Notes under the pieces: model-generated
What the model saw: only the letters and a program-made list of their open reading frames with translations
Databases searched by the model: none
What the model was told of the DNA's origin: nothing
Assembly (NCBI RefSeq): GCF_002289565.1
Contig: NZ_NTFY01000075.1
Span: 1-64,000, forward strand
Reading direction: 5' to 3'
Length of the DNA stretch: 64,000 bases
Source: Rhodopirellula sp. SM50
Lineage (GTDB): Bacteria > Planctomycetota > Planctomycetia > Pirellulales > Pirellulaceae
Shown: in pieces, positions 1,159 through 48,677 of the stretch
Numbering within the stretch: position 1 is the first letter of the stretch
Layout of the letters: each line of letters starts with the position of its first letter
Program-made: the position numbers and the translations under genes

Positions 1159-3537
1159 ATGGCTTTCTCCCGCTTCACCATGACATTCATCGTTCAGCAG
1201 TGGCTTCAGCAGTGGGCTCGCGTCTCCGTGCCAGCGGGCATCTGGTTGGCGACGGCCGGCCTGTCGCTATGTCTCGCCCAGGATTCGGATCCCTCCTCGC
1301 TTCAACGCCAATTCCCCGCTGCGAAGCCGCTGGAAATCGAAGGCGACATCGCTGCGGAAATGGTCGACGGCATTGACCGGTTCTTGCTTGCCAAATTAAA
1401 TCAATCTGCCGCCGCCCGCGAGCGACATTGGCAACGCGATTTCACGTTCCGGGAATTGTACCTCCGCTCGGTCCAGCCCAATCGAGACCGCTTGGCACGC
1501 ATGCTCGGCGCCCACGAAGACCGAGTTGATCCGGTCGTCATTGCACGAAACTTTGTCGTCGGCTCCTCGGTCGACGACTCGCTCTCGGGCTACCGGGTCT
1601 ATTCGGTTCGCTGGCCGGTTTTGGAAGACCCCGACCCCGGTCGGTCGATCGTCTCGGTGTACGGCGAAGGGCTGTTGCTGGAACCGATCGAACCGAGCGC
1701 GGTCGTGGCAAACGTCGTCGCGCTGCCTGATTGTGACCAAACACCCGGGCAAATCAGTGGGATAGCCGACGGGATCGATCCCGAATTGCAATTCGCCAGG
1801 CGCCTGGCCGAGCGAGATTGTCGCGTGTTGGTTCCGATGTTGGTCAGCCGCGAAATCAATTCCCGCGGCGGCCGCGCGAAACTGACCAGCCGTGAATACA
1901 TCTATCGGGCGGCATTCGAATTGGGACGGCATCCGATCGGTTACGAAGTCCAAATGGTGCGTGCGGCGATCGACAGTTTTGATGCGTCGCGTCCGATCGG
2001 AGTGATCGGCGCCGGCGAGGGCGGTCGAGTCGCCCTGGCAACCGCGGCGCTCGACCAACGGGTCGACGCACTCTGCGTCGGCGGCAGCTTTGGTGCAAGC
2101 GAGAGGGTTTGGACCGAGCCGATTGATCGCAATGTCTTCGGTTGGTTGGCTGAATTCGGAAACGCGGAAACCCTGACCCTGGTGGCGCCTCGCAAGGTCT
2201 TGATCAATCACGCACAGACACCCGCACGTTCCTTCGACGGCAGCGGCGGCGGCGCCCCTGGCACGATTCATCCGATCGACGCCACCGAAGGCCGGCAAGA
2301 AGTCGAACGGGCGCGGCAGTTGGTCCGCCCCTTGATCGAAAACGAACATTGGCAGATCGACGAGACGGCGTTCCGCGACGCCCCCTGCGACCAAGCCACC
2401 ACGGACCGCTTCGTCGAAGCATTGATCAATCGTCCGCGTGCGGATCGACAACGACGCGGCGTCGATGCCGTTCGGAAGGTCGATGAGGCGGCAATGCAAA
2501 CGCGGCTGGTGGAACATCTCGATCGCCACAATCAATTGCTGCTGCGTGAATCCCCGTTCGTCCGCCGTGAGTTCATGAAAGATCTCAACACGAATTCAAT
2601 CGAGGACTATGTCCAGTCCTCACAGCGTTATCGGCAGATCTTTCGCGACGATGTCATCGGCCACTTCGACGATTCGTTGTTACCGCCAAACGCCCGCGTG
2701 CGACAAACGTGGCAGCAACCGGGATGGACGGGCTACGAAGTGGTCCTGGATGTCTTTGAGGATGTGATCGCCTACGGGGTGCTGATTGTGCCCGATGACA
2801 TGAAGCCGGGTGAAAAACGTCCGGTCGTGGTCTGCCAACATGGCTTGGAAGGACGCCCCACCGATACATTTCTGGGCGATCACCGAGCCTACCATGACTT
2901 TGCCGCCCAACTGGCGCGGCGCGGGTTCATCACCTTCGCGCCGCAAAACCCGTACCTGTTCAAAGATCGCTTTCGAACGCTGCAACGCAAGGCGAATCCG
3001 CTGGGCAAGACGCTGTTCTCGGTGATCGTTCCCCAGCAACAACAGATCGTCAATTGGCTCAAGTCGCTGCCCCAGGTCGACCCGCAGCGGATCGCGTTCT
3101 ATGGTCTCAGCTACGGCGGAAAATCGGCGATGCGAATCCCCGCCCTCGTGACCGATTACTGTCTCTCGATCTGCTCGGCCGACTTCAATGAATGGGTGCT
3201 CAAGAACGCATCGACGCGGCACCCGTTCAGCTACGTCGGAACCGGCGAGTACGAGATCTTTGAATGGAACCTCGGTGAAACCTTCAACTACTCAGAAATG
3301 GCGGCCCTGATTTGCCCGCGTCCATTCATGGTCGAACGCGGACACTTTGACGGCGTCGCCACCGACCAGTGGGTGGCGCATGAATACGCCAAGGTGCGCA
3401 ATCTCTACGCCGCCCGCCTCAAGATCGGTGAGCGAACCGAAATCGAATGGTTCGACGGCCCCCACACCATCAACGGCCAAGGCACGTTCGAATTTTTGCA
3501 CAAGCATCTGAACTGGCCCAAGCCACCATCCGAGTAG
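1159..3537 (+). CDS. Secreted tandem alpha/beta-hydrolase, acetyl-xylan-esterase-like
   Basis: Exported protein of 792 residues with a hydrophobic signal-like segment at about residues 21-36. The frame extends upstream to 1018, but that part is arginine-rich and unlike a protein. ATG at 1159, or 1180, is the likely start. The C-terminal half is a complete alpha/beta-hydrolase: HG motif near residue 557, nucleophile elbow G-L-S-Y-G-G with Ser651, and a late His769 in G-P-H-T-I. This resembles the acetyl xylan esterase/Abhydrolase_7 group common in planctomycetes. The N-terminal half resembles a second hydrolase lobe, but its elbow reads G-A-G-E-G-G with Glu287 where serine is expected, so it is probably non-catalytic. 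The substrate is unknown; an esterase acting on polysaccharide or small esters is inference. Confidence 0.75.
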   Translation: MAFSRFTMTFIVQQWLQQWARVSVPAGIWLATAGLSLCLAQDSDPSSLQRQFPAAKPLEIEGDIAAEMVDGIDRFLLAKLNQSAAARERHWQRDFTFRELYLRSVQPNRDRLARMLGAHEDRVDPVVIARNFVVGSSVDDSLSGYRVYSVRWPVLEDPDPGRSIVSVYGEGLLLEPIEPSAVVANVVALPDCDQTPGQISGIADGIDPELQFARRLAERDCRVLVPMLVSREINSRGGRAKLTSREYIYRAAFELGRHPIGYEVQMVRAAIDSFDASRPIGVIGAGEGGRVALATAALDQRVDALCVGGSFGASERVWTEPIDRNVFGWLAEFGNAETLTLVAPRKVLINHAQTPARSFDGSGGGAPGTIHPIDATEGRQEVERARQLVRPLIENEHWQIDETAFRDAPCDQATTDRFVEALINRPRADRQRRGVDAVRKVDEAAMQTRLVEHLDRHNQLLLRESPFVRREFMKDLNTNSIEDYVQSSQRYRQIFRDDVIGHFDDSLLPPNARVRQTWQQPGWTGYEVVLDVFEDVIAYGVLIVPDDMKPGEKRPVVVCQHGLEGRPTDTFLGDHRAYHDFAAQLARRGFITFAPQNPYLFKDRFRTLQRKANPLGKTLFSVIVPQQQQIVNWLKSLPQVDPQRIAFYGLSYGGKSAMRIPALVTDYCLSICSADFNEWVLKNASTRHPFSYVGTGEYEIFEWNLGETFNYSEMAALICPRPFMVERGHFDGVATDQWVAHEYAKVRNLYAARLKIGERTEIEWFDGPHTINGQGTFEFLHKHLNWPKPPSE

Positions 3538-3554
3538 GGCATGCTGTGCATGCC
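3534..3554 (+). repeat. GTAG-headed REP palindrome (GCATGC family)
   Basis: GTAG (3534-3537) is followed directly by the arms GGCATGC and GCATGCC around a TGT loop. The TAG of the tetranucleotide is the stop codon of the preceding hydrolase gene. The same stem core recurs at 48657-48677 and, degraded, at 47275-47293, on both sides of the RAYT gene. Confidence 0.75.
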
Positions 3555-3594
3555 ATCTCGCTAGGATCAACGCGGGCTAGAAGCTTCAAGACTT

Positions 3595-3698
3595 GTTCCC
3601 AGGCTCCGCCTGGGAACACACTGTCTTGGAGGCTCTGCCTCCACCGGACCGCCGGCGGAGCCGGCGTTGAATTGCGTTCCCAGGCGGAGCCTGGGAAC
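3595..3698. repeat. Inverted pair of 23-base palindromes
   Basis: Two perfect palindromes with arms GTTCCCAGGC and GCCTGGGAAC lie at 3595-3617 (loop TCC) and 3676-3698 (loop GGA). They are exact reverse complements of each other. A third small hairpin, GGAGGC-TCT-GCCTCC, lies between them at 3628-3642. The pair forms a REPIN-like unit between convergent genes. There is no T-tract, so ordinary intrinsic termination is not supported. Confidence 0.8.
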
Positions 3699-3782
3699 GA
3701 GTCGCGACATGACATTTAGCGTTAGACGGACCACTACTCCACCGAGCATGCTCCGCCTGCCATCCGTCACGCACAGCGCGAA

Positions 3783-4754
3783 CTACTTCGCTGCCATCGC
3801 TTCGCGCAACGCGTCGGCCAACTCGCGCAGCTCCGTCTCGGTAAACGCTTTCTTGCCAGCCAGTCGTGCCGCCCGCTTGGTCCAAACGACGTCGATGCCC
3901 GGCGGCAAATCTTCCAGCGCGAACGCCAATGCTCCCGGCACCCCTAAAAAGTTAAATTCGTCGGCGTCGACATGGATCTGACGCGTTTCGTGTGTGTTCC
4001 AATTCGTCACGCGCATCGGCTGATTGATGATCGCCATCGGATGCTCTTCGTCGCTCGGCGGAACGAGCAACCAGGTCACCAAGGCGCCTTCGCCGGTGGC
4101 TGGATCCAGGTACACCAAATGGCGTGTCAGGTACTTGCGGTGTTGTCCATTGCGCAGCATCACCGATGGCGCATCGAACATCGCCAGCGCCGGGCTCTGG
4201 GCGATCAACGACACGTCGGCGAGTTGTCGCTCGTTGGTCTTCAGCACTTGTCGAGCGATAAAACCGAGCGGCACGTCCAAGTCCGACGCGGTGTCCGAGG
4301 AGATGATGATTCGGCCGGCGGGACCTTCGACACTGTAGCCCACACCGATTTGCTTCAGTTCGTACGGACCTTGTGGCGTCGATTTCTCGACCCGCGCCAT
4401 GATCGTCAGCGCGCACTTGGTTGCCGCGTCACGGATCGATCCGCTCAGTGAAGCGATGTCGCCGCTGTTGATCTTCGGAGATGCGACCAAAATCTGCCGA
4501 TTCCATAACACCTGCTCGGATTCATCCGTCACCCGCGTGCCGGGATCGATCACCGCGATCGGGGTCGGCTGAAACAGCGCGTCGTTCGCCGCCGCGGGAC
4601 GATGAACCGAAATCAGATGCGATGCGAACCACACCCCGATCAAGGTCCATGCCAAACGCTGCGCCGGAGACACGGGGCGCGGGGGCATTCGCCGCCGCGG
4701 CGCTGGGCCGTACTGCATCGATTCAACATCCGTTAGAGTGTGAGTTTGTTTCAT
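3783..4754 (-). CDS. Membrane-anchored or exported protein of unknown function
   Basis: 323 residues from the ATG at 4754, which has GGAAGTG a short distance upstream; an internal ATG at 4718 is an alternative. One hydrophobic segment at about residues 36-50 follows an arginine/proline-rich stretch and looks like a signal anchor ending near an A-A-A-N-D site. The rest is a soluble, beta-rich-looking domain without cysteine clusters or catalytic motifs I recognise. It includes a segment rich in ordinary enzyme-free features such as T-W-L-L-V-P-P and a helical, lysine/glutamate-rich tail. The gene diverges from the ABC ATPase gene with only 21 bases between the chosen starts, so the two probably share regulatory DNA. 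The function is not recognised. Confidence 0.7.
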   Translation of the reverse strand: MKQTHTLTDVESMQYGPAPRRRMPPRPVSPAQRLAWTLIGVWFASHLISVHRPAAANDALFQPTPIAVIDPGTRVTDESEQVLWNRQILVASPKINSGDIASLSGSIRDAATKCALTIMARVEKSTPQGPYELKQIGVGYSVEGPAGRIIISSDTASDLDVPLGFIARQVLKTNERQLADVSLIAQSPALAMFDAPSVMLRNGQHRKYLTRHLVYLDPATGEGALVTWLLVPPSDEEHPMAIINQPMRVTNWNTHETRQIHVDADEFNFLGVPGALAFALEDLPPGIDVVWTKRAARLAGKKAFTETELRELADALREAMAAK

Positions 4755-4775
4755 GACCACGTCGATCACTTCCAG

Positions 4776-5534
4776 ATGTCCCAGCACCGTTCCGAATCTC
4801 CATCCGCCCGCGCGGATGAAATTCCCTCTCCACAGTCGGATCCATCGGCTCACCGATCAAGCGTTCCCGCTCCCGTCCTGGTCGAGGGGCGGCAGGTTTG
4901 TCGCCATTATGACGAAGGAAAAGTCGATGCGCTCGCCGATGCGTCTTTTTCCATCGGCAGGGGACACTATGTCGCCATCGTCGGCAAGAGCGGAAGCGGA
5001 AAAACGACCTTGCTCAACATGGTCGGTGGCCTCGATCGTCCCACCTCCGGTGAAATCTATTACGACGGACAACGTCTCGACGCCCACAGCGACCTCGATC
5101 GCCATCGTTCACGCAACGTCGGTTTTGTGTTCCAAAGCTATTATTTGTTGCCCAATCTGACGGCTGCGGAGAACATTCAAATCCCGATGTTCGAATCCGA
5201 CAACGATCCAGCCGAACGCGCCGAACGGGCCAAACAATTACTCGATCAAGTCGGCTTATCGGGCCGCGAAAACCATTTGCCCTCCGAACTCTCCGGCGGC
5301 GAATCGCAGCGGGTGGCCATTGCCCGGGCGCTCGCCAATGCGCCCCAGTTGATTCTGGCCGACGAACCGACCGGCGCCCTCGATAGCGAAACGGGCGACT
5401 CGATTTTACGGCTTCTCGAAGAACTCAATCGCAACGAATCGATCACCTTGATCGTCGTCACGCACGACGAAGCCGTCGCCTCCCGCGCCGATCACCAACT
5501 GCGTCTAGCCGACGGACGCATCGTCGCCCCGTAG
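4776..5534 (+). CDS. ABC transporter ATP-binding protein, LolD/MacB type
   Basis: Cytoplasmic ATPase subunit of 252 residues that should power a membrane exporter or lipoprotein-release or peptide-efflux permease. Visible motifs are Walker A GKSGSGKT (70-77), a Q-loop in V-F-Q-S-Y-Y, the signature L-S-G-G-E-S-Q near residue 168, Walker B L-I-L-A-D-E-P followed by the T-G-A-L-D loop, and the switch histidine in V-V-T-H-D-E. The Q-loop region and T-G-A-L-D are typical of the LolD/MacB/FtsE branch. An in-frame GTG at 4740 would overlap the divergent gene, so the ATG at 4776 is preferred. No permease gene is adjacent on either side, so the partner must be encoded elsewhere. Confidence 0.88.
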
Positions 5535-5969
5535 AGAACCGACGCTGCAAAAGTCTTAGCGTCTTGCCCTACGGGTCCGTCGTGCGATCAATGTCATGTG
5601 CCGCTGATCCGTCTGATTGGCTCGCGGACTCAAGCCGGTGGGTTGCGATGCGACGCTGGAAGCGCCAGCCCGAGGACACCCCCCAGTGCCCCTTTTAAAT
5701 GAACCCACGGATGGCAGAGCGTACCCACGGATGAAAAGCAGCCAGGGATCCGTGGGTACGCTCTGCCATCCGTGGGTGTTCTCCGTTGCGGTGATAGCGG
5801 AGATCGTTTGTTTGATCAGATCGATCGAGGGAAGCCGTTTGCAGACGGTGCATGCCCCACGCATGACATCTACCAATAGACGCTGCGCTACGATGAAATC
5901 CGTCACTTATACAATTGACGTCTCCCGCAGCGACCTGGGATGCGTCTGAAGGCTGAACACCTACACTCC
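5535..5969. other. Intergenic region between convergent genes
   Basis: No gene is supported. It holds a GCAA...TTGC segment followed by CCTAC (5547-5572), reminiscent of a GTAG-headed REP read on the minus strand, and the large palindrome at 5703-5777. Both flanking genes (ABC ATPase and SNF2 helicase) end here. Confidence 0.6.
5703..5777. repeat. Perfect 30-base inverted repeat with internal direct repeats
   Basis: The left arm 5703-5732 and right arm 5748-5777 are exact reverse complements across a 15-base loop. Each arm contains the 10-mer ACCCACGGAT (or its complement) at both of its ends. The stem lies between two convergent genes. It has no clear T-tract. It may act as a bidirectional transcript-end structure or be a MITE/REP-type element. 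Confidence 0.85.
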
Positions 5970-7726
<1,757 letters not shown>

Positions 7727-9116: not shown

Positions 9117-9240
9117 GTGGGGCAAGCATCCTGCCTGCCAGCTCACAAAGTCGGGCAAGCATCCTGCTTGCCTGTCAAAAAGTGGGGTAAGCATCTTGCT
9201 TGCCTCTCAAAAAGTGGGGTAAGCATCTTGCTTGCCTCTC
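9117..9240. repeat. Four tandem 32-base REP-like units
   Basis: Units start at 9117, 9150, 9182 and 9214 (33, 32, 32 and 27 bases). Each begins GTGG or GTCG and contains a stem of the GGCAAGCA / TGCTTGCC type with a TCC or TCT loop. In units 3 and 4 one arm base has changed (GGTAAGCA). All copies have the same orientation. The array is 3' of the small helical protein gene and is not a CRISPR, as there are no unique spacers. Confidence 0.85.
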
Positions 9241-30976: not shown

Positions 30977-31031
30977 GCCAGGACTTGTCCTGGCGGGAGT
31001 CATACAATTGCCAGGACGAGTCCTGGCCTAC
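30977..31031. repeat. Inverted pair of REP palindromes (GCCAGGAC family)
   Basis: Stems with arms GCCAGGAC/GTCCTGGC lie at 30977-30994 (loop TT) and 31010-31027 (loop GA), 15 bases apart and in opposite orientation. The second is followed by CTAC, that is GTAG on the other strand. It lies upstream of the HAF-like gene start at 30945. The same family recurs at 37830-37885. Confidence 0.85.
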
Positions 31032-31401
31032 CTTGTCGTCTCTCTCGGCACAGAGCGGATTACCGCTGTGAATTCCCAGATGTGATGGGAATCGGCGATT
31101 TCTCGCATTCACTCCCGTAGCCGGACTCGCCAGAGTTCGGTCGTCCCGGAAAGACAACACCGCCGCTTCTCGGCATCGCCCCCTCGATCCGGTTGCGGGT
31201 CACTTGAACCGCCTGCTCCTACCAATCAATGCGCCGTGACGCAGCGGAGCTGTCGAAGATTGTCGAAAAGATTCTGAAAAGTCGCGGGGGCACCAGACGT
31301 CAGGCAAGTGCCATCAAACCCGAAGTCTGGCGACTCCAGCTACGAAGTACCAGACTCGCCGGACATTGCGGCTTGGTGACGGTGGATCCAGTTCCTGGGA
31401 A
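31032..31401. other. Non-coding region between the kinase and HAF-like genes
   Basis: No gene is supported. It contains the GTAG-headed palindromes at 31117-31140 and 31321-31345 and otherwise nothing I recognise. Confidence 0.6.
31117..31345. repeat. Inverted pair of GTAG-headed palindromes with compensatory changes
   Basis: GTAG at 31117-31120 precedes the arms CCGGACTC/GAGTTCGG. On the other strand, GTAG at the 31345 end precedes CTGGAGTC with a partner GACTTCGG. Two stem positions changed together (C to G in one arm, G to C in the other), which supports a conserved stem. The copies face opposite ways about 180 bases apart. Confidence 0.65.
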
Positions 31402-34400
31402 TCACACTGGCTTTGGGTCCGATACCGCTCCATCGATGCGCTGTTCCGCCTCACGCAACAGCAATTGAAAGGTCATGCGAGCAATCGGTTGCAACTCGGA
31501 TCGCATGTCCAGCGGGTCCTCCTTCGACCACTGCTGAGATTTTTGCAACCATTCTTTCGCTTGATCGGGCTGGCCGGCGGCGGAGTGCGCGATCGCCAGG
31601 GCAGGTAGGTTGCAGGGGGCTCCGTCCCACGTTGACTTCAGCGAGCTACTAAAACACTCGATCGCTTCACCCGATTGACCGTCTCGTAGGAGACAGAGGC
31701 CCAAAAAATGTTGCGCCCATGAAGTCAACTTTGCGTCAGGATCGGGGCGGGCCATCGCCACGATCTGCTTCGTGTCGAGTACAGGATCGCGTGACAAGGC
31801 GGCAGCACGAGCCACTTTCAGCAATTCGCGCGGGTCCGTCGAATCGGCAAACTTCGCTGCTGCCTCGTGGCAAATCCGTTCGTATTCGACGCGGCGGTCG
31901 TGCAACAGATACCAAGCGGCTTGGTAGAGGTAGCCCAAACCGCCCACACCCGCTTCCACTTCCGCGACGAGCGCCATGATCGTCTCTTCAGAGGCATTTC
32001 GTGAATGTTCGAGATCGAGGAGTCTCAACCATACCGCTCTGTCCGTCGGTCTGATTTCGACGACGCGTCGATAGTCTTCGATCGCCTGGTCGTAGTTCTT
32101 CAGTTGTAGATGAGCCTCCGCACGAAAGTAGTTTGCCCAATGATCAGGTGCGCCGAGTCGTATGGCTTCGTCCAGGCCGACAATTGCTTTTTCGTAGTCG
32201 CCCAAGAAAAAGTACGCCTTGGCGCGATTTTGGTGAACCCACGCGACTGTCGGGGCCAACCGAATTGCTTCGTTGTAGTCAGCAATCGCTCGGTCGTACT
32301 GCTTTAGACGTAGATGAGTGTTCGCGCGAGCGTTCAACAAATGATGGATGTTGGGTGCGAGCCGAATTGCTACTTCAAAATCGGCCATGGCGGTTTCGTG
32401 TTTCCCCAAGGCTCTATAGGCCTCTCCTCGCCGTTTGAAGAGCATGGAGTCTTGCGGATTGAGCCGGATCGCCACGTCATAGTCGCTGATCGCCTTTTCG
32501 AACTGCCCCATCTCGAAATGGGCTTCCCCTCTTCTTCGCAAAAACTCGGCCAATTCCGGGAGGCGAATTGTGCTGCGGATTCCACGCCGGACCGCTTCCA
32601 GAAGATCGCGTTCGGCTTCACGATCACGACCTGCAGTGAGATGCCGTCGTGCCCGTACAAGCAAAGGCGTTCCGTCATTCTCGGAAAATTCGACGGCTCG
32701 ATTGATGGCTTGCTCCGCGGCATTGGCGTCTCCCCGGTGTTCCAACACAGCCGCGCGGCCTAGCCAGGCATGCGGATCCGCATCATTCCAGGCAACTTCA
32801 TCGCGGAACAGCGTCGATGCCTCCGCATCCAGCAATTCAAGTGTTCGTTGACGATTCCATACGACCGCAGGCTTGTCTTGTTGATCCACGAACCATTCAC
32901 GGGCCTTCTGATACCAAGACTGTGCCTCTTCCTCGAAGCCCGTACGTTTGCATGTGATGGCCAGCAAGTACCAGGTGTAGGCGGGGGAAGAAAGCATTGC
33001 GTTGGACGGATCATTGAGCAGCCGATCAGCCTCGATCAGTTCTCGATAGGCCTCGCCCAAGTGACCAGCTCGCAGATACGCCGCACCGAGGGCCTTGCGA
33101 TATTGCATTGCCGCTGGCGCTGCGTCCGCGGCAAACTTGGCACGCGCGACGATCGATCCCCAGTCTGCCATGTCCGCTCCACCCAGCGAACAGGTCCAAC
33201 TCACAAACTCCTCAATAACCAGCGACGAGGAGGGCGGGACCGTCTGGACCATGTCACGACAGATTTGATCGTACTCATCGCGGTCTCCCTGACTCAGTTT
33301 CAACAGGGCCAGCTCGTACCAATGCCGATAGTTGCCCGCTTGTAGCTCAATGGCTTTCTCCAGGTCTGAGACTGCGCCGTCGATTTTTCTGCTGCGACGC
33401 CGAACGAGGGCACGGTATCGCCGCGTTTGAGCATTATCGGGCGACATGGCGACCGCGCGGTCAGCCAAGCCAAGTGCATAATCATTCAGCGCGCTCGCAT
33501 CAGCGGACTCGACCGCGACGCTCCATGCCAGCGTTGCCAGGCTTGTGGTGTCATGGGGCATGATGCGTTGCAATGTTTCCGCATCCTGCGGGATCGATTC
33601 GTATCGCTCAAGTCTCTTCTTGAGTGCGATTCGTCGCCTGTAGAGTTCTGGGTCTTGCGCGTCGATTTCAAGCAGCCGATTGAGTACTTCAAGAGCGGCT
33701 GCGAGGTTTCCGCTGTTGAATTCGACCTCGAATCGATGTCGGAACCACGCGTTGCGTTCCTCAGCTGAAACGCGAAACTGACCAGGATACTTAGCGGACA
33801 ATTCCTTCCATGATTCTTCAATTATTGCCGCATCGACGACCACTTCGTTGTCCCGCCCATCGAGTGTTATGCCAGCACAGATGCCCGACAATCGACGAAG
33901 TTCTTCCACCGATCGGGACTCGCGCGGCACGTCGAAAACACGCACATGCCCGTCGCGACTGGCCGTTGCAATTTGCATCGCGTCGTCCGAAACCGCGATT
34001 CTAAAGATGCCATCGGCATGCGGATACGGCGGGCTAATGGGCTCTCCGGTTTGAATGTCCCAGAGCCGCAGGTACTGTTCGGCTTGTCCGTTGGCATTGT
34101 TTGTCGCAGTACCAGTGGCCAGCCACCGCTGGTGCGGGTCCACCGCCAATGCTCTCACCGGGCGTCCGAGACGGATTTCGGGCGCTACTTGCCTCCCGTT
34201 TCGAACGTCCCAGAATCGCAGTGTGCCGTCACGGCTAGTGGAGAGGACGTGACTTTCGCCAGCCAATAGACGCGTATCCTCGACGTAGCCTGGGTGCGCC
34301 ACCCGGGGCGTTAGCGCCTTGCCTGTTTCGAAATCGAAAACCTGAGCGAATCCCGGTCTGTCGGCACGCCCGCCGCCAACAACAATTCGTTTGTTGTCGG

Positions 34401-37400
34401 CACTGACACAAACCGCCCGTATGGTTTCCTCGAAGGGGATCGTGCGAACGAGGTTCATCTCGGGCAGGGATCGGATTTCGACGCGGCAGCCTCGGTAATC
34501 CCAGTAGACGCGACCAAAACCACCCACCCAGAACTTGCCGTCGGTCGTGACAACTGCCTGATTCATCGGTGCGTCAAAGGACAACATCTCAGAAAGCGAC
34601 TCTCCCGTGGTCGCATCGATGGCCAGCAACTTGGAATGCTTTACGTTCGGTCCGGGGTAGTTGGCGTGTGCGACGAACCATTTGCCCGCGGGATCCATGA
34701 CTGCCCCCGTCCGAGTTTCATGATACGGCCGGCCAGCTTCATCGATTGAGCGGTACGGTTCGTTTTCCAGGCTTCCGGGTGAAATGTGGAAATCATCTCG
34801 CTGAAAAACGACGCCCCCGTCGGACATTCTTAAACGCGCCAAGCGACCGTTGTAGCTGGCAGTCACTATGGACTTAGAATCTTGATGGAGCATTGCGAAT
34901 ACTGTATTCGAAGGCCGCGTGATTGGCTGGCCGACAATTGACTTGCTTTTCAAATCGTACGTCAGCAGGCGACGCCCCGGCTGCGCAACGAACAGCGAGT
35001 CCTGCGAATTCACGCCCTTTACAAAATCGCATTCGGTGGCGAACCAGTTGCCTACCTTCCTGACCAGCGAGGGTGCTGGTCTTGCCGCAGCCAGGTCCCA
35101 AACTCTCCTAACTCCATCTGCACTGGACGTTAGCAATCGCTGTCCATCGGGAGTAAAGCGTGCGGCATGCACAGAATCGGGATGCCGAATTCTTGGCAGA
35201 GTGCGCTGGCCTGTCTCCACACTCCAGACAGAGATCTCGCCATCCTGCGAGGCGGTCACCACTCGGCTGTCGTCGCTCGAAAATTCCGCTACCCGAATCG
35301 GCGCGTCGTGTCGGAGCCAATCAGTCACGGGTTCTCCAGACGCTATATCCCAGATTCTTGCTGCGTGATCACGGCCGCAGCTCAGCAGCAGCTTCCCATT
35401 CGTGCTTAACCGTACTGTTTGAACTGCATCCGCATGCGCAAGACGGGGATAGAGTTGTTTGCCGGTCTCTAGACTGACCACGGCAACGAAGACATCATTG
35501 GGAACTGCAATCATGTTGGCACCTGCAGCCAATGAATAGCCCTGATCCCCTGTGAGACTCGAGATTGGGATGTGCATTGCTTTGCCAGGGCTGTTCAGGT
35601 CCCAAACCGTCAATGAATCGGGAACGCTCGGCTGGTCCTCGGCGGCGATCAAGTACCGTCCGCTCGTATTGAACGTTGCCTCAACAATCTCCCCCGTGCA
35701 ATCATTCAGGACGGGCGTGACGGCCTCTCCACTGTCCGTATTCCAGACTCGAACGCGCCGGTTGCCGTATACCACAAACACTCGGTCTCCCTGCGGGCCG
35801 AATCCGGCGAAGACTGGGCGACCCAAATCTTCCTCCAACTTGACCTTGACGGCGCCCGAGTCGGTGTCGGCAACAACGACCGCACCTGCCTTCGTGCAGA
35901 TCACGATCTGCGTTCCATCCGAATTCAGCGTCGCAAAACGTCCGACGTCAAGTGAGAAATCCGACTTACTTCCATCGAGTGACCAAATACTCGGGGGGCC
36001 GCGTTTACCGCGAAGCAAGACCCGGTTTCCATCGGCAAAGAATTCAATGCGCTCGACGACTCGATCCGATTTCCAGTTGCTTGCCAGTTTCGGACAACGC
36101 TCGATGGTCGCAGCGATCCGCATGCGATGAATGAACTCGCGATTTGGGTCATCACGATCGATCTCAAGTGCTTTCAGGAACCAAGGCAAGGCCGTGGTGT
36201 GATCTCCTTTGCCGACGTATTCCGTTCCCTGTCGAACGTATTGCCTGACGAGAGCCTGGCGGTGCTGGTTCGCAGCGGATTCCGCATCTGTTCGGGCGTC
36301 GATCGCTGCGCCCCGAGCCGTTTCGGCATCGGATCTCGCGGCTTGTTCAGCGATCAGCCGGCGGCCAGCAATCGCTTCCGCATGCACGGCCCGATCGCGC
36401 TGACGACTCGCCCGCAGCGCCTGCCAACCGGACGTCAATAATCCGATCAATAACGTCCCGACTAACAAACCCGCGGTCAGTGCGACCCGGCGATGTCGCC
36501 TCGTGAACTTGCGAAACCGATAGGCTGCGGACGGCGGACAAGCAAGCACCGGCTCGTCATTCAAGTAACGCTGAACATCATTTGCCAATCCGTTGGCTGT
36601 GTCGTAGCGCCGCGATCGATCCTTCTCCAGCGTCTTCATCACGATCCAGTCCAGTTCACCGCTGAGCTGCCGTGTCAATTCGGCAGGCGTGATGTGGCGG
36701 TTGGCGGCAATAGAGGGCAGAGTATCCACAGTGCTCAACCGTTGACTCGGCTTGGGCGGCTCTTCCTCGCGGATGATTCGCAGCAATTCATCGAAAGCCG
36801 CGCTGCGCATTCGCTGACGGTCGAATGGCGTGTTGCCCGAGAGTAGCTCGTACAGCAAGACGCCCAGCGAGTAGATATCGCTGCGGGTGTCGATGTCCAT
36901 CTGGTTCAGCTTCGCCTGCTCGGGGCTCATGTAGTCCGGCGTGCCCACCACCTGACCGAACTCGGTGAACATCGTTTTGGTCGTTAGCCGCTTCTCCATC
37001 GCCTTCGCTAGACCAAAGTCAATGATCTTGGGTACGGGTTTGTCGTCATACTCAGCGACCAACACGTTGGATGGTTTGATGTCGCGATGAATGATTCCCT
37101 TTTGATGCGCGTGCTGAACGGCGTGACAAACCGGAAGGAATAGCTCCAGTCGCTGGCGTGGTGTCAGGTGATGCTCGTCGCAATACTGCGTGATCGGGAC
37201 TCCGCGTACCAATTCCATCACAAAATAGGGACGTCCGGAGTTGGTCGTCCCGACATCCAGCACTTTGGCGATGCCCGGATGATCCATCATCGCCAGCGCC
37301 TGCCGCTCGGCCTCGAAGCGAGCAATCACCGCTTTGGTGTCCATTCCCGGCTTGATGATTTTCAGAGCCACGCGCCGCTCGACTGGCTCGATCTGCTCGG

Positions 37401-37746
37401 CCATGTAGACCGATCCCATGCCCCCTTCGCCGATCTGTTGCAGCAGTTTGAATGGGCCGATCAGGCTACCCGCTTGCTCCGGCATCGAATGCGCGATCGT
37501 GGGATTGGTCCCGGCGAGATCCTTGGGCGGCGAGTCGAGGAAGCTGCCCGAATGTTCATGGGCCTCAATGAGTGCTTCTACCCGCCGGCGAAGGTCACTG
37601 TCCCCGCCACATGCTCGCTCCAAAAATTCCGCCCTCTCCGGCTCAGGCTTCTGCACGGCCTCGCCAAAAATTGTCTGAACTTGTTGTGGATCGCCGGGCA
37701 TGGTTGGTGCTACTTCAATTGAGCTAGCGTTGGGCCTAGCCTCCAT
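31402..37746 (-). CDS. Membrane Ser/Thr protein kinase with WD40 and TPR repeats, module 1
   Basis: 2114 residues from the ATG at 37746; a TTG 21 bases upstream is the alternative. A short N-terminal region (E-F-L-E-R-A-C-G-G-D) is shared with the kinase of module 2. The PKN2-type kinase domain spans about 98-395: glycine loop G-E-G-G-M-G, Lys129 in V-A-L-K, H-R-D with Asp222, D-F-G with Asp243, and G-T-P-D-Y-M-S-P-E. A single membrane helix follows at about 422-440. The C-terminal part holds WD40-like blades (about 550-1270) and then a long TPR array (about 1340-2080), on the far side of the membrane if the topology is kinase-in. It follows the ECF sigma gene and precedes the HAF-like gene. 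Confidence 0.9.
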   Translation of the reverse strand: MEARPNASSIEVAPTMPGDPQQVQTIFGEAVQKPEPERAEFLERACGGDSDLRRRVEALIEAHEHSGSFLDSPPKDLAGTNPTIAHSMPEQAGSLIGPFKLLQQIGEGGMGSVYMAEQIEPVERRVALKIIKPGMDTKAVIARFEAERQALAMMDHPGIAKVLDVGTTNSGRPYFVMELVRGVPITQYCDEHHLTPRQRLELFLPVCHAVQHAHQKGIIHRDIKPSNVLVAEYDDKPVPKIIDFGLAKAMEKRLTTKTMFTEFGQVVGTPDYMSPEQAKLNQMDIDTRSDIYSLGVLLYELLSGNTPFDRQRMRSAAFDELLRIIREEEPPKPSQRLSTVDTLPSIAANRHITPAELTRQLSGELDWIVMKTLEKDRSRRYDTANGLANDVQRYLNDEPVLACPPSAAYRFRKFTRRHRRVALTAGLLVGTLLIGLLTSGWQALRASRQRDRAVHAEAIAGRRLIAEQAARSDAETARGAAIDARTDAESAANQHRQALVRQYVRQGTEYVGKGDHTTALPWFLKALEIDRDDPNREFIHRMRIAATIERCPKLASNWKSDRVVERIEFFADGNRVLLRGKRGPPSIWSLDGSKSDFSLDVGRFATLNSDGTQIVICTKAGAVVVADTDSGAVKVKLEEDLGRPVFAGFGPQGDRVFVVYGNRRVRVWNTDSGEAVTPVLNDCTGEIVEATFNTSGRYLIAAEDQPSVPDSLTVWDLNSPGKAMHIPISSLTGDQGYSLAAGANMIAVPNDVFVAVVSLETGKQLYPRLAHADAVQTVRLSTNGKLLLSCGRDHAARIWDIASGEPVTDWLRHDAPIRVAEFSSDDSRVVTASQDGEISVWSVETGQRTLPRIRHPDSVHAARFTPDGQRLLTSSADGVRRVWDLAAARPAPSLVRKVGNWFATECDFVKGVNSQDSLFVAQPGRRLLTYDLKSKSIVGQPITRPSNTVFAMLHQDSKSIVTASYNGRLARLRMSDGGVVFQRDDFHISPGSLENEPYRSIDEAGRPYHETRTGAVMDPAGKWFVAHANYPGPNVKHSKLLAIDATTGESLSEMLSFDAPMNQAVVTTDGKFWVGGFGRVYWDYRGCRVEIRSLPEMNLVRTIPFEETIRAVCVSADNKRIVVGGGRADRPGFAQVFDFETGKALTPRVAHPGYVEDTRLLAGESHVLSTSRDGTLRFWDVRNGRQVAPEIRLGRPVRALAVDPHQRWLATGTATNNANGQAEQYLRLWDIQTGEPISPPYPHADGIFRIAVSDDAMQIATASRDGHVRVFDVPRESRSVEELRRLSGICAGITLDGRDNEVVVDAAIIEESWKELSAKYPGQFRVSAEERNAWFRHRFEVEFNSGNLAAALEVLNRLLEIDAQDPELYRRRIALKKRLERYESIPQDAETLQRIMPHDTTSLATLAWSVAVESADASALNDYALGLADRAVAMSPDNAQTRRYRALVRRRSRKIDGAVSDLEKAIELQAGNYRHWYELALLKLSQGDRDEYDQICRDMVQTVPPSSSLVIEEFVSWTCSLGGADMADWGSIVARAKFAADAAPAAMQYRKALGAAYLRAGHLGEAYRELIEADRLLNDPSNAMLSSPAYTWYLLAITCKRTGFEEEAQSWYQKAREWFVDQQDKPAVVWNRQRTLELLDAEASTLFRDEVAWNDADPHAWLGRAAVLEHRGDANAAEQAINRAVEFSENDGTPLLVRARRHLTAGRDREAERDLLEAVRRGIRSTIRLPELAEFLRRRGEAHFEMGQFEKAISDYDVAIRLNPQDSMLFKRRGEAYRALGKHETAMADFEVAIRLAPNIHHLLNARANTHLRLKQYDRAIADYNEAIRLAPTVAWVHQNRAKAYFFLGDYEKAIVGLDEAIRLGAPDHWANYFRAEAHLQLKNYDQAIEDYRRVVEIRPTDRAVWLRLLDLEHSRNASEETIMALVAEVEAGVGGLGYLYQAAWYLLHDRRVEYERICHEAAAKFADSTDPRELLKVARAAALSRDPVLDTKQIVAMARPDPDAKLTSWAQHFLGLCLLRDGQSGEAIECFSSSLKSTWDGAPCNLPALAIAHSAAGQPDQAKEWLQKSQQWSKEDPLDMRSELQPIARMTFQLLLREAEQRIDGAVSDPKPV

Positions 37747-37829
37747 TTTGAGGCTTCTATCAACCAATGCGACGTATCGCAGGCAAACTGTCGAAAAAAA
37801 TGAAACGAATTCGCAATTGGCGAGAATCC

Positions 37830-37885
37830 GTAGGCCAGGACTCGTCCTGGCGGGATCTTGGTTGCCAGGACGAGTCCTGGCCTAC
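37830..37885. repeat. Inverted REP pair (REPIN-like) at the sigma gene stop
   Basis: GTAG at 37830-37833 precedes a GCCAGGAC/GTCCTGGC stem (37834-37851). A second stem at 37864-37881 is in opposite orientation and is followed by CTAC (37882-37885). The flanking 21-base halves are perfect reverse complements. Read on the minus strand, the GTAG at 37885-37882 supplies the TAG stop of the ECF sigma gene. Confidence 0.9.
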
Positions 37886-44355: not shown

Positions 44356-44403
44356 TGCACAATGACGAATTGTCCTGGGGCGTGAATCTTGGTCAGTTCA
44401 ACC

Positions 44404-44428
44404 TGCGTCGGTCAGGTCGACCGACGCA
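44404..44428 (+). terminator. Ten-base-pair hairpin after the module 2 kinase
   Basis: TGCGTCGGTC (44404-44413) pairs with GACCGACGCA (44419-44428) across a 5-base loop, about 48 bases after the kinase stop. There is no T-tract. It may be a transcript-end stem or another repeat element. Confidence 0.45.
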
Positions 44429-44454
44429 AGGTAGCCATCCGGCTTCGTGTCTTC

Positions 44455-44668
44455 GGTTGGACCATCTTACGCATGTTCACCAGTTTTCTCAGCCGCATCG
44501 GTGCCGACACCGATGCAGATTAGCGGCTTCGGCGCAGTTTTCTCAGATTCTTGTCTCGGATTACGAGAAGAGTACAGCGAACCGATTTTTCTACGACGCT
44601 GAGGTCGATGCAACCTACTGCACGAAACAATCCCCGTTCGTGCTGGAGGTGAATCTGACCGCGGTGAG
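44455..44668 (+). repeat. Dispersed 215-base repeat, copy 2
   Basis: Counterpart of 38668-38882 in the same orientation. It lies between the module 2 kinase and the beta-barrel gene, so the two copies bracket module 2. Confidence 0.7.
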
Positions 44669-44766
44669 TTCGTGAGACTAATCTCGCGTGGATTTGGGGA
44701 GGCGTATTTGCCTTTGAGGGGTGGGGAACGTATGGGAGAGTAACAGGCCTTATCGACAGCCAAGCT

Positions 44767-46395
44767 CTATCGAAGGGTTCGGCTGTATTGGATGCGGAAA
44801 GCTCCGTCGAATTGGCGGTCGTTATTGGTGAGTGGGACTGCGTAGCCGGCGGTGAGCTGGGACTGCTGGTTCAGCTCGAACGTGGTGCCGACGACGGCGC
44901 TGGTGATGCTCGTGCTGCCGCTGAAATTACCCACTTGCAGGTTTCCGGAAGAGACAACGCCGGGGTTGTTGAGCGAACTTGTTTGATGGAGCTCGAAAGT
45001 CGGGATGATGGCGGTCAAGCACTTGGCGTTGTCGTTGCGGTAGGCGAAACAACCGATCGCGATGTCAAAGAAGAAGTAGTCGGTGTCGGAAAACGATCCT
45101 GCCCGCTGAAGTCCGTTGCCGTCGGGGTTCAAGTAAACCGTGTTGTTGTCGGTGGCAAAGCTGAATTGGGTAAATCCTTGGGCGAACCAGCGATCACCGG
45201 GCATGTAGAGCCCGCCGAGGAAAGGTTGGATCTGGACGGAGTCGTTTTCTACTCGAAGCAGCGAATTGCCGTTGCTGAGATTCATCGTGACGTCGTCCGT
45301 CGTGGGCATCGCCAAGCCGAGTCCACCAGAGAATGCGTAGTTGTCGCCGCTAAGCAAGAGTGCTTTCAAATACAGAGTTAGATTTCCGAATTCTGCGTCG
45401 GAGCTGTTAGAGATGCTCGTCCCATTGGCCGTCGAATGAGTTGCCGCATCGGTTGCGAACGGCAAACGCATCTCCACCGAGAGCAGACCGTTCATGAATG
45501 TCCTTTCAAAACCTGGTGTGAACCGACTCAGCCCGTCGCCTTGGCTGCCATAGGAAACTTCGTCGAAGTAGCTATATCGAAAGTAGACTCGGTCTTGAGG
45601 AAGCACGGAGCCGCCTTCAGCAATCTTCAAGGCACCGACTCCACCATTGGCCGCGTCTGCAATCGACGTGTCGAGGTTGATGACATAGTCGTAGAAGTAA
45701 TAGGCGTCCAAGTCCTCGCCGCCGTTTAACGTGTCGACTCCGCCCTGCAGCATCGCTCCGGAGGACGCACTGTTATAGACGGTCGTTCCGGTGATGTTAT
45801 TTCGGCTCTGGAAAACCCCATCGACCGCTGCCGCGTAGGTACCCGACGGAGTTTGCAGCAAAATGATGTCGTATCCCTGAGGCGTAGACGCGAGCTGGGC
45901 TTGGATCTGAGAAATCGTGTTTGTAGTAGTAAGTACGGCGTTGTCGGCGATTGTTCCTGCGAGCGTGCCCCCGGGAAGCGTGCCGCCGGCGCGAAGAATC
46001 GCTTGAGCTTGCTGAACAGAAATTAGCGAAGTGTCAAAAATCCCCACCGGTCCAGGCTCGGAGATCGAAAGCACGCTGTTGCCGGGTGGCAAGACCGCTG
46101 GCGCGTCCAAGTCGTCCGCGAACACGAATAGTCGGTCCATCGTCGAACCGCCGCGAGCCCCGACATTGGCCCCACCGAAGAAGTCCCCGATCATTGCAGG
46201 GATGCGTGACTGGAGTGGCCGACAGCGTTTCGGACGCGTCCCAAGGATTGCATCACACGGAGTCTCGGGAAACTCATCGCAATACGATGCGTCCGATTCA
46301 ACAATCGTCAAGTTCTCATCCGCGTTCACGAGACCGGCCGAGAAGACGATGGCTGCCGCGAAAAACAAAAAGAAACAAAGTCGTGAAACAACCAC
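44767..46395 (-). CDS. Putative outer-membrane beta-barrel protein
   Basis: 542 residues from a GTG at 46395, chosen because GGAG lies 6 bases upstream and a clean signal peptide follows (R-L-C-F-F-L-F-F-A-A-A-I-V-F-S-A). ATGs at 46443 and 46455 are in frame but lack a good site. The mature protein has few cysteines. From about residue 240 there are alternating aromatic strands (for example Y-Y-F-Y-D-Y, Q-F-S-F-A-T, F-F-F-D-I-A-I-G) typical of a beta-barrel. It ends in a strand F-R-I-Q-Y-S-R-T rather than in a terminal Phe. Its transport role is unknown. It is transcribed on its own as far as can be seen. Confidence 0.68.
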   Translation of the reverse strand: MVVSRLCFFLFFAAAIVFSAGLVNADENLTIVESDASYCDEFPETPCDAILGTRPKRCRPLQSRIPAMIGDFFGGANVGARGGSTMDRLFVFADDLDAPAVLPPGNSVLSISEPGPVGIFDTSLISVQQAQAILRAGGTLPGGTLAGTIADNAVLTTTNTISQIQAQLASTPQGYDIILLQTPSGTYAAAVDGVFQSRNNITGTTVYNSASSGAMLQGGVDTLNGGEDLDAYYFYDYVINLDTSIADAANGGVGALKIAEGGSVLPQDRVYFRYSYFDEVSYGSQGDGLSRFTPGFERTFMNGLLSVEMRLPFATDAATHSTANGTSISNSSDAEFGNLTLYLKALLLSGDNYAFSGGLGLAMPTTDDVTMNLSNGNSLLRVENDSVQIQPFLGGLYMPGDRWFAQGFTQFSFATDNNTVYLNPDGNGLQRAGSFSDTDYFFFDIAIGCFAYRNDNAKCLTAIIPTFELHQTSSLNNPGVVSSGNLQVGNFSGSTSITSAVVGTTFELNQQSQLTAGYAVPLTNNDRQFDGAFRIQYSRTLR

Positions 46396-46931
46396 GGGAA
46401 ACTCCGGTACGTCAGCCTGGAAAACCACTCCGTAGACTAGCATCGGCCGACGCATCAAATGGATTGTATCGGTGCTACCGGCAAACCAGAAAGAACAACC
46501 CAGAGCATCCCGAAGACCGCTACAACCCGCAAAGTTTATCGGATGGATGCGGAATGACCTTGCACAGGTCGTTGGGCACTCCGGCGGCGAGCAGAGGAGC
46601 ACGAAAACGATTCATTGGTTCAGCAGGTTTCTGTTTTATGCCGCTTTTGCTCTGACAACGGCGTTTTAACTCGTCCCAGAAAGACAGGGTTTTGGGCAGC
46701 CCAGCCTGACTCCATCAGTCTCTGTTGACCCCATCAACTTCTTCCCAACATTGAACACGGCAATGGGGCAGGGCTCGCCAAAAGCCCGCGACACCCTGTT
46801 GATTCAAGTCAGTCCTCTCGAGAAGTAATACATGCGACGCCCAATAGGTCAAAGGCGGTAGCAGTCGTTTTTGAGGTTCGACACCCACGGAACCCTCCGC
46901 GTGATTTGAGACCACGAAGTGGTCAAAGATG

Positions 46932-46961
46932 GTAGCCCCGGATCGCGCAGCGCATCCGGGG
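46932..46961 (+). repeat. GTAG-headed palindrome (CCCCGGAT family)
   Basis: GTAG (46932-46935) directly precedes CCCCGGAT (46936-46943) and ATCCGGGG (46954-46961), with a GCGC-rich 10-base loop. It lies about 410 bases 3' of the RAYT gene. Confidence 0.75.
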
Positions 46962-47274
46962 AGATTGGTCCGATACCAACACACCGACCCAGAATGGGTC
47001 GCAGAACCTCGGCCTGGATCTGCGACGCTCTGCGGCGGCGAGAATTCCGCACCCATTTACCTGGCGTGCGCTGCGCAGGTCCCAGGGGTAACATTTATGA
47101 TACCGTCGGCATCAGTCATCAATTGACGTCCTCGTGACCGCATGGAGGATTTGAGATTCAGTCGCCGAGCAATCGATTCGAACAGCTCCAGTAAGTCACG
47201 CTGTGCGTGACACCCGCGAGACGCGCCCATTTGGACGCGACCAAGGACCAGGTTTCGGGTACCGCAACCGAAGT

Positions 47275-47293
47275 CATGCATAGCAAGACCTAC
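47275..47293 (-). repeat. Degraded REP copy 3' of the RAYT gene
   Basis: Read on the minus strand it begins GTAGGTC and keeps a TGC-rich core matching the stem at 48657-48677 with two mismatches. It lies about 80 bases past the transposase stop. Confidence 0.5.
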
Positions 47294-47370
47294 TCGGCTG
47301 TTGGGAACAACGCCGAACGGTTGCACCTGCCAGACAAAGCCCTACGCGTGCCCGGACTCCACCAGCCGAT

Positions 47371-48531
47371 TCACCCCAAACAGCCCGCCGCAATCGCTTG
47401 ACCGCGGTGATACGACTTGCCTTGGGCGTCGGCATCCTCCTTCATCGATTCGCTGCGGCCGACACAGGTTGCGTTGCCAAAATATTTTTCCCAGTGCCAA
47501 ACCAACTCCGCAAACATCGCGGCATCCACCCCGATCGACGTCAGCTTCTTCACCATCGCCTCGGGAACCTTGGCGGTCATAGTGTTCTGCCCTTGCCTGG
47601 CGACCCACTTGAGAAGCTGCCAATAATCGTCCCACTTCATCTGCAAGAAACCACGATCGCTCGAACGCACACCCTCGGTGTTAACTTCCGCATCACTCGA
47701 CAGCTTGCTGGGCTTCATCCGCAGCGGAGCAAGCCAAGCGTCGCGGCGGACCTTGCGTCCCGTCGGGTTTCGTCGCTTTCGTTCGCGTTTTTCCTTTAGT
47801 TCATCGACCGGTGTGGTTCGGATCTCCTTTGCGGATTCTTCGCGAGGAACAGGCTTCAAATCAAAGGCAGCAGAAGCGATCACCTGGCCTTTCTCCGCCT
47901 TTCGGCGATCGTAGGCAGAAGTGTGGCGTGCCTTTTCCGGAGACTCGACCATCGCGGCACGCACCGGGTTCAAGTCCACGTACATCGCGCATGCCAGCAA
48001 TCCCGCTTCGTCGACGATTCGCATCGCCTTGAAACGTCCTTCCCAGAATCGGCCGGTGCAATTGTCTTGTTTGTTCGCCATCCGGGCGATGGGCTCGGCA
48101 AGGGACCGCATGAACCACGAAAGATCGGATAGACGCGAGCGTAAATCGGCAATCCGATCGCCATCTTTCGCCAGTGTTTGTACTTCGTGATCCGTTGGCT
48201 CGGCGAGGTGTTCCTCCATGCGTTTACCGGGAAAAACACGCAACCAGCGGATCGCGACTTCCTGGTCCGTCCACTCGGCGACGACATCCGGTCGATTTCG
48301 CAAAATCAGATGAAGATGATTGCTCATGATGGAGTAGGACAGCACATCGATGGCAAACACCGAAGCCAAGGCCTCCATCCGTCTACGAATCCATTCCTTC
48401 CGAAAGGAATAGTCCACGCCGGTCTGCTGATCCAAGCCCGCGAGAAACGCACGCCTTACGCAGCGCTGCACACAGTGACAAATACAGACTTCGTCCGGCG
48501 AAAACTGCTCGCCCCGTTTCAGCCTCGGCAT
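47371..48531 (-). CDS. RAYT-type Y1 transposase (REP-associated tyrosine transposase)
   Basis: 386 residues from the ATG at 48531, with GGGAGG 7 bases upstream; a GTG one codon earlier is possible. The HUH motif H-L-H is at 72-74 within S-N-H-L-H-L-I-L, and a probable catalytic Tyr184 lies in M-Y-V-D-L-N-P-V-R-A. The G-R-F-W-E-G-R-F element (160-167) is also typical. These features match TnpA_REP/IS200-like proteins that process REP sequences. The length is well above the usual 150-250 residues because of a basic C-terminal extension. It is flanked by copies of one REP family. No inverted transposon ends suggest a self-moving insertion sequence, so a domesticated RAYT is likely. Confidence 0.85.
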   Translation of the reverse strand: MPRLKRGEQFSPDEVCICHCVQRCVRRAFLAGLDQQTGVDYSFRKEWIRRRMEALASVFAIDVLSYSIMSNHLHLILRNRPDVVAEWTDQEVAIRWLRVFPGKRMEEHLAEPTDHEVQTLAKDGDRIADLRSRLSDLSWFMRSLAEPIARMANKQDNCTGRFWEGRFKAMRIVDEAGLLACAMYVDLNPVRAAMVESPEKARHTSAYDRRKAEKGQVIASAAFDLKPVPREESAKEIRTTPVDELKEKRERKRRNPTGRKVRRDAWLAPLRMKPSKLSSDAEVNTEGVRSSDRGFLQMKWDDYWQLLKWVARQGQNTMTAKVPEAMVKKLTSIGVDAAMFAELVWHWEKYFGNATCVGRSESMKEDADAQGKSYHRGQAIAAGCLG

Positions 48532-48586
48532 CACAAACCTCCCAAAAACTAAGTTAAGCAGAATCTACCACAACGCCAATCTTATG

Positions 48587-48605
48587 GAAGGTGGGTGGCA
48601 CCTTC
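48587..48605 (+). repeat. Small hairpin upstream of the RAYT gene
   Basis: GAAGGTG (48587-48593) pairs with CACCTTC (48599-48605) across 5 bases, 56 bases 5' of the RAYT start. The GTAG header is absent here. Confidence 0.6.
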
Positions 48606-48656
48606 TATATGTCGAACGGTTCGAATGATCGATCGGAAGCGAAGCTTTCGTTGGAT

Positions 48657-48677
48657 GTCATGCACAGCATGACCTAC
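48657..48677 (-). repeat. GTAG-headed REP palindrome (GCATGC family)
   Basis: GTCATGC (48657-48663) and GCATGAC (48667-48673) with an ACA loop, followed by CTAC, which is GTAG on the minus strand. It lies 15 bases past the stop of the giant gene and 5' of the RAYT gene. It shares its core with the copy at 3534-3554. Confidence 0.8.

What the first reader, a model, noticed from the sequence alone, without database searches (positions are those of the whole stretch)
3534..48677. Several families of GTAG-headed palindromes, some as inverted pairs, with a RAYT gene in the same window
At least four stem families follow a GTAG tetranucleotide directly: GGCATGC/GCATGCC (3534, 48657), GCCAGGAC/GTCCTGGC (30977-31031, 37830-37885), CCGGACTC/GAGTTCGG (31117) and CCCCGGAT/ATCCGGGG (46932). 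A fifth with GTGG and GGCAAGCA stems is tandem at 9117-9240. Two families occur as inverted pairs, as in REPINs. In Proteobacteria, REPs carry a GTAG or GGAG header and are mobilised by RAYT transposases. I infer that a comparable REP/RAYT system operates here and that one or more RAYTs serve several stem families. Such systems are best described outside Planctomycetes.
Basis: partly seen in the sequence, partly recalled or inferred. Interest (0 to 1): 0.7.

Follow-up and report, generated by a model that had tools for sequence, protein, structure and literature searches.

The report
GTAG hairpin repeats in a planctomycete
Two of the hairpin families pointed out are real, genome-wide mobile repeats of a known bacterial kind, but the transposase gene beside them belongs to another system; the transposase that fits the main family lies elsewhere in the genome.

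Summary
Partly right. Two window families are true high-copy REPs in this 9.8-Mb planctomycete (nearest named relatives found: Stieleria sedimenti and strain TBK1r). Family A (GTAG + GKCAYGC-TGT-GCRTGMC; 3534, 48657) has 247 GTAG-headed matches. Family B (GTGG + GGYAAGC...; 9117-9236) has 120. Reversed-pattern controls gave 0. Family C (GCCAGGAC) is minor: 12 places at up to 2 mismatches, 7 with GTAG. D has one GTAG copy; E was seen once in a 0.80-Mb sample. Family A's likely partner is a canonical RAYT on another contig, a clear homologue of E. coli TnpA-REP and bracketed by 16 family A copies. In 29 of 30 RAYT loci of the taxonomic family I found GTAG repeats, with lineage-specific stems, so one RAYT serving several families is not supported. 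B's partner was not found. The window's "RAYT" (47371-48534, -) is a long multicopy Y1 transposase. GGTGCCACCC-type repeats flank 30 of 34 such loci (0 of 27 RAYT loci); the same GTAG 9-mer lies on both sides at 0 of 34 (21 of 27 RAYT loci). GTAG REPs in planctomycetes, Rhodopirellula baltica included, were printed in 2013. Verdict: new member of a known kind; the long-Y1 repeat link is the least known part.

The parts
3534..3554 (+). Family A REP, GTAG-GGCATGC-TGT-GCATGCC; the TAG of its header is the stop codon of ORF 1018-3537
   Evidence: genome count
9117..9139 (+). Family B REP copy 1, header GTGG
   Evidence: genome count
9150..9172 (+). Family B REP copy 2, header GTCG
9182..9204 (+). 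Family B REP copy 3, header GTGG
9214..9236 (+). Family B REP copy 4, header GTGG
30977..30994 (+). Family C hairpin without GTAG header
31010..31031 (-). Family C hairpin with GTAG header, inverted partner of 30977
37830..37851 (+). Family C hairpin with GTAG header
37864..37885 (-). Family C hairpin with GTAG header, inverted partner of 37830
31117..31140 (+). D: GTAG-headed hairpin, only one GTAG copy genome-wide; probably a relic
31320..31343 (-). Degenerate inverted partner of D (GTAG-CTGGAGTC-GCCA-GACTTCGG)
46932..46961 (+). E: GTAG-headed hairpin, one copy in the 803-kb sample
   Evidence: (not listed there)
47191..47211 (+). Family A copy with header GTAA, downstream of the long-Y1 gene
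47273..47293 (-). Family A copy with GTAG and one stem mismatch
47371..48534 (-).
48590..48602 (-). GGTGCCACCCACC repeat upstream of the long-Y1 gene; folds as AAGGTG-CCACC-CACCTT with its neighbours
48657..48677 (-). Family A REP, GTAG-GTCATGC-TGT-GCATGAC

Best explanation
Families A and B are REPs: short single-strand hairpins with an unpaired 4-base header. A is GTAG-headed and is, most likely, kept and spread by the RAYT on contig C104 (287.8-288.5 kb). By analogy with E. coli and Stenotrophomonas TnpA-REP, the RAYT would bind the folded hairpin when the DNA is single-stranded, read GTAG, cut nearby through its catalytic tyrosine, and join the strand elsewhere, leaving inverted doublets and tandem arrays. 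B is GTGG-headed with the same architecture; its enzyme was not found. C, D and E are minor or relic hairpins. The window's long Y1 transposase is a separate mobile element that lies among family A copies by chance or because such elements land in REP-rich spacers. Shown: copy numbers, header conservation, stem covariation, the REP array around the C104 RAYT, and the matching of RAYT and stem across genomes. Inferred: cutting, strand transfer and the cause of spread.
For: 247 GTAG-headed A matches and 120 B matches, controls 0. Stem pairs change together: A pair 2 is T-A 33, G-C 32, mismatched 1; pair 5 is C-G 35, T-A 29, mismatched 2 (66 contexts). Single-strand folds leave the header unpaired. 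The C104 RAYT scores 184 bits on NF047646 (cut-off 80), matches TnpA-REP 4er8 at 1.8e-34, keeps HUH and tyrosine and has 6 family A copies on one side and 10 on the other. Of 149 genomes, the 5 with a RAYT at 62% identity or more all hold A (7-247 copies); 5 of the 32 others with a RAYT and 4 of the 112 without hold any. GTAG tops 256 headers for 9-mers shared by both flanks of RAYT genes: 24 of 30 loci, mean 6.4, tied only by its overlapping frame TAGG. RAYT identity and stem identity go together (r 0.37, permutation p 0.0004, 23 of 27 loci used).
Against: G138, of the same genus, has 111 GTAG-headed A copies and no RAYT match at 1e-10: loss, divergence or another enzyme. B has no identified RAYT (one search scanned the 26 newly fetched loci and own loci; most matches were not fetched). 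At one RAYT locus (L135) I found no GTAG repeat. The permutation test does not separate RAYT descent from species descent. No excision or insertion event was observed; the one orthologous site compared is ambiguous, because the relative without a hairpin still reads GTAGGGC.
Confidence: 0.85

Rival explanations
1. The long Y1 gene in the window is the enzyme of family A, which brackets it in the window.
For: Three family A copies lie within about 200 bp of the gene, one upstream and two downstream.
Against: 0 of 34 long-Y1 loci share a GTAG 9-mer on both flanks, against 21 of 27 RAYT loci. Its 4 relatives in the same genome have no family A hairpin within the fetched flanks (perfect stems or one mismatch, GTAG header). 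The gene is common where A is absent: 90 of 149 genomes hold it, 14 of 149 hold A.
Confidence: 0.05
2. The palindromes are selected host elements (terminators, mRNA stabilisers, gyrase sites) without a mobile origin.
For: The copies seen in the window lie between genes or at gene ends, and one supplies a stop codon.
Against: Header conservation, array around a RAYT gene, patchy presence among relatives (14 and 16 of 149 genomes) and stems that differ between RAYT lineages. No run of T was seen after the two window A hairpins at 3534 and 48677. A host use acquired later is not excluded.
Confidence: 0.07
3. Family B is spread by a DDE-type transposase as part of a small inverted-repeat element (MITE) rather than by a RAYT.
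For: In G104 and G024 the B doublet sits in a 130-bp element with TGCTGAA...TTCAGCA ends (11 copies aligned of 16 loci fetched). G104 has no match to the C104 RAYT at 1e-10.
Against: 0 of 85 B copies examined in this genome have TGCTGAA or TTCAGCA within 40 bp 5' of them; here B occurs singly and in tandem. G104 does hold weaker Y1 relatives.
Confidence: 0.25

Closest known systems
GTAG REP super-family and REPtrons (PMC3733652; passages read)
   Same: GTAG header, 7-bp stems, short loop, tandem and inverted arrays, a tyrosine transposase inside the array; several families in one planctomycete, R. baltica. Its authors also note a family (O. terrae GTAG-20) whose header is mostly GTGG.
   Different: I could not see the figures, so whether stems A or B are among the 24 listed families is unknown.
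E. coli TnpA-REP (4er8) and group 2/3 REPtrons (PMC8266576; passages read)
   Same: C104 RAYT is a clear homologue (1.8e-34); DHWH, WQ and YIHWNP motifs.
   Different: Family A hairpins are short, perfect palindromes like those of group 3, without the bulge that E. coli REPs need.
TnpA-Y1 subclass 2.3 (PMC6006769; passages and its section 22 read)
   Same: Long protein, HUH of the NHxH type, WE, YVDLNP; several copies per genome.
   Different: The paper finds no REP-like structures at subclass 2.3 genes; here 30 of 34 loci carry GTGCCACCC or GGGTGGCAC. Motif match only; no tree with their sequences was made.
TIRYT / TIRtron (PMC3733652; passages read)
   Same: Tyrosine transposase flanked by inverted repeats unrelated to GTAG REPs, sometimes dispersed.
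   Different: The shared motif named there for some is GGGGWSAS; the repeat here is GGTGCCACCCACC, in G105 in direct orientation at both ends.

Membership tests
REP (GTAG super-family) | High copy number above background | tested here: met
   A: 247, B: 120, controls 0. C: not above control at up to 2 mismatches. D: one GTAG copy
REP (GTAG super-family) | Conserved unpaired GTAG/GTGG header | tested here: met
   A 43 of 52 GTAG (hand count); B 94 of 100 GTGG
REP (GTAG super-family) | Stem kept by compensatory change | tested here: met
REP (GTAG super-family) | Cognate RAYT flanked by the same REP | tested here: met
   Family A only. Family B: not found
REPIN | Inverted doublets, headers outward | tested here: met
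   Family A: 20 of 66 contexts within 40 nt, 14 at 4 nt; family C pairs
RAYT (window gene 47371-48534) | Passes the curated REP-transposase model | tested here: not met
   39.7 bits, cut-off 80
RAYT (window gene 47371-48534) | Flanked by GTAG REPs as a class | tested here: not met
   0 of 34 loci
RAYT (C104 gene) | Passes the curated model, HUH and Tyr kept | tested here: met
   184.4 bits; invariant H60, H62, Y133 in 20 of 20
Y1 HUH transposase (window gene) | HUH pair, catalytic tyrosine, Y1 fold | tested here: met
   H73, H75, Y185 invariant in 23 of 23; best Foldseek hit 4er8, probability 1.00 but E only 0.01, model pLDDT 70; Pfam Y1_Tnp weak, 21 of 23 at E up to 0.1
RAYT / Y1 enzymes | Cleavage and strand transfer | not testable with these tools
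   needs protein

The most novel reading that the evidence does not exclude
Stieleria-like planctomycetes run several parallel single-strand hairpin systems that do not share parts. One is new in detail: the long (subclass 2.3-like) Y1 transposases, held to have no associated hairpins, recognise a hairpin of their own, GGTGCCACCCACC with loop CCACC, and insert at copies of it. In the same genome the header letter of a REP family may set its cutting site: GTAG for A, GTGG with an enriched CC at +3 for B, as the guide model of PMC8266576 would predict.
Probability: 0.4. Interest if true: 0.55.

Novelty: new member of a known kind. Interest (0 to 1): 0.42.

Why it matters
Planctomycetes are distant from the Proteobacteria in which REPs were studied. 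The loci here give a set of 30 RAYT genes, most with their repeats, in which the header stays GTAG and the stem changes, so the stem-reading code of the enzyme becomes testable. The separate link between long Y1 transposases and GGTGCCACCCACC gives a first candidate recognition site for a subclass described as having none.

Tried and rejected
One RAYT for all families: not supported. REP header as a general stop codon: only 3 of 9 sampled A copies have 60 or more open codons before the TAG, against 22% of all GTAG; no case. Finding B's RAYT by flanks in B-rich genomes: none. A strict hairpin finder on bulged RAYT flanks printed nothing; the flanks were then read by eye for 14 loci and tested by shared 9-mers. 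CT enrichment as a cutting-site signal at family A: weak (8 against 3.0 at +3, not corrected for many positions). Equality of B arms between genera (46 of 46, spacer 29 of 46) was set aside as evidence of selection, because the copies were found with a pattern that demands those arms. Literature: 'repetitive extragenic palindrom' with 'Rhodopirellula' gave 0 papers; strings of the long-Y1 repeat gave 59 papers, 10 listed, none on such elements by title, so absence from print is not shown.

Full report
What is there. The window is contig C120 of a 9.8-Mb genome in 146 contigs. A gene at 1018-3537 is 88% identical to genes of Stieleria sedimenti and of strain TBK1r, the best named matches (the tool may leave out the genome itself).

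Are they more than chance. In 445 kb of own sequence GTAG is the most enriched of 256 tetranucleotides before perfect hairpins (14 against 1.08). CTAG (6 against 0.31), TGTT and CTCG follow. In 803 kb the figure is 11 against 0.67, and 0 in one resampled control. These samples include the window and stretches picked around Y1 genes. Genome-wide counts then separate the families. A: 247 with GTAG, control 0. B: 120, control 0, 94 of 100 listed rows GTGG (first header base could not be C in the pattern). C: 5 perfect places, 12 at up to 2 mismatches against 11 for the control, but 7 of those 12 have GTAG, so a small real family is likely. D: one GTAG copy. E: one in 803 kb.

Anatomy. Family A is GTAG, a 7-bp stem and loop TGT (61 of 66 contexts). 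Its second and fifth stem pairs vary by paired change: T-A 33, G-C 32, T.C 1; C-G 35, T-A 29, C.A 2. Family B is GTGG, an 8-bp stem and loop TCC. Its third pair is a T.G wobble in 126 of 131 contexts (the last two loop letters were fixed by the pattern). A partner form with GTGGCG...GCG occurs (55 contexts). Folded as single-strand DNA, A and B leave the header unpaired. Inverted partners within 40 nt were found for 20 of 66 A contexts, 14 of them at 4 nt.

The enzyme of family A. NF047646 finds two genes over its cut-off, on C104 and C115. The C104 gene (L096 1384-1959, -) is 191 aa, matches TnpA-REP 4er8 at 1.8e-34 and has 6 and 10 family A copies on its two sides. The C115 gene has other palindromes around it. 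Homologues of the C104 RAYT occur in 37 of 149 genomes of the taxonomic family, with one match in 26 of the 37. For the 30 loci fetched, perfect GTAG hairpins were seen at 14. GTAG 9-mers shared by both flanks were seen at 24, the highest of 256 headers together with its overlapping frame TAGG (mean 6.4). Adding one-sided or shorter matches leaves only L135 without any. Stems differ by lineage: GTCATGC, GGCCGGT, GGTCCGC, GTTATGCT, GCCAGGT and longer bulged ones such as GCCGGAT... RAYT identity and stem identity correlate (r 0.37, p 0.0004; 23 of 27 loci with a recognised gene, 3 loci without one dropped). Species descent is not removed from that test. Genomes with a RAYT of 62% identity or more all hold A (5 of 5); other RAYT genomes 5 of 32; genomes without a match 4 of 112, among them G138 with 111 copies. 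G138 is the main result against a strict link.

The gene in the window. Gene 47371-48534 (-) is 387 aa with an HUH pair and YVDLNP. It fails NF047646 (39.7 against 80 bits) and has no Pfam hit at 0.001. Its model is of middling confidence (pLDDT 70), and the best Foldseek hits are 4er8 and IS608-type transposases, at E 0.01 and above. It is multicopy: 5 in this genome, found in 90 of 149 genomes. G105 has 11 listed copies; the ten compared with the first share 94-99% of DNA over about 1.5 kb or more. That is the mark of a mobile element, not of a single-copy RAYT. In 29 of 34 loci GTGCCACC-type letters stand upstream of the start, the nearest 63-145 bp away. Within 300 bp before or 400 bp after the match, GTGCCACCC or GGGTGGCAC occurs at 30 of 34 long-Y1 loci and 0 of 27 RAYT loci. 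The reverse holds for GTAG 9-mers on both sides: 0 of 34 and 21 of 27. Perfect GTAG/GTGG hairpins of any stem within 500 bp: 4 of 34 and 13 of 27. In the 803-kb sample GGTGCCACCCACC occurs 13 times (shuffled 13-mers: mean 0.04, maximum 2). Ten lie beside a long-Y1 gene, partly because two such loci were chosen for the sample; three lie near contig starts with no such gene in the stretch. In this window the gene has three family A copies close by, so it probably sits in a REP-rich spacer. REPs are known landing sites of insertion sequences (PMC1525189, abstract read).

How it most likely works. From PMC8266576 (passages read): TnpA-REP binds the folded single strand, needs GTAG to differing degrees, cuts at CT and can join strands; in one system changing the header changed the cut site. 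I infer the same for family A. For B the header GTGG goes with CC at +3 in both forms (20 of 71, expected 5.2; 21 of 55, expected 4.0), but CT at +4 is also enriched in the first form (19, expected 3.2), so the link is only suggestive.

Known or new. GTAG repeat families in R. baltica and tyrosine transposases with flanking repeats there are stated in PMC3733652 (passages read). PMC6006769 (passages and section 22) states that subclass 2.3 genes lack REP-like structures. Filing the window gene there rests on motifs and length. The REP/RAYT part is a new member of a known kind.

Noticed in passing
window 3595-3617 and 3676-3698: Hairpins GTTCCCAGGC-TCC/GGA-GCCTGGGAAC, of the kind that flanks the second RAYT of the genome (C115, L097), right behind the family A copy at 3534; 12 strand hits in the 803-kb sample.
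   Followed up: partly
window 30977-31031 and 37830-37885; L050 4981-5006 and 7861-7886: Family C pairs stand on both sides of the 2121-aa kinase/WD40/TPR gene 31402-37767; on C113 two GTAG...CTAC copies stand on both sides of a 2.9-kb stretch with a PF04754 gene. Unexplained.
   Followed up: no
L364-L378 (G104, G024): Family B doublets inside a 130-bp element with TGCTGAA...TTCAGCA ends in two genera.
   Followed up: partly
L004 500-2050 (C46): An IS200-like TnpA (YIRNQEEHH) surrounded by GTAG-CCTAGGGC-AAC-GCCCTAGG and GGCCAACGGCC palindromes; PMC6006769 lists its likely subclass (1.2) as without such repeats.
   Followed up: no
window 3534; L224, L225, L226: At the orthologous stop codon S. 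sedimenti and TBK1r each have two perfect family A hairpins, the window one, and Rhodopirellula sp. JC639 none, though it reads GTAGGGC there.
   Followed up: partly
L209-L219 (G105): Long-Y1 copies are bounded at both ends by RTGGGTGCC in the same direction, unlike the inverted arrangement elsewhere.
   Followed up: partly
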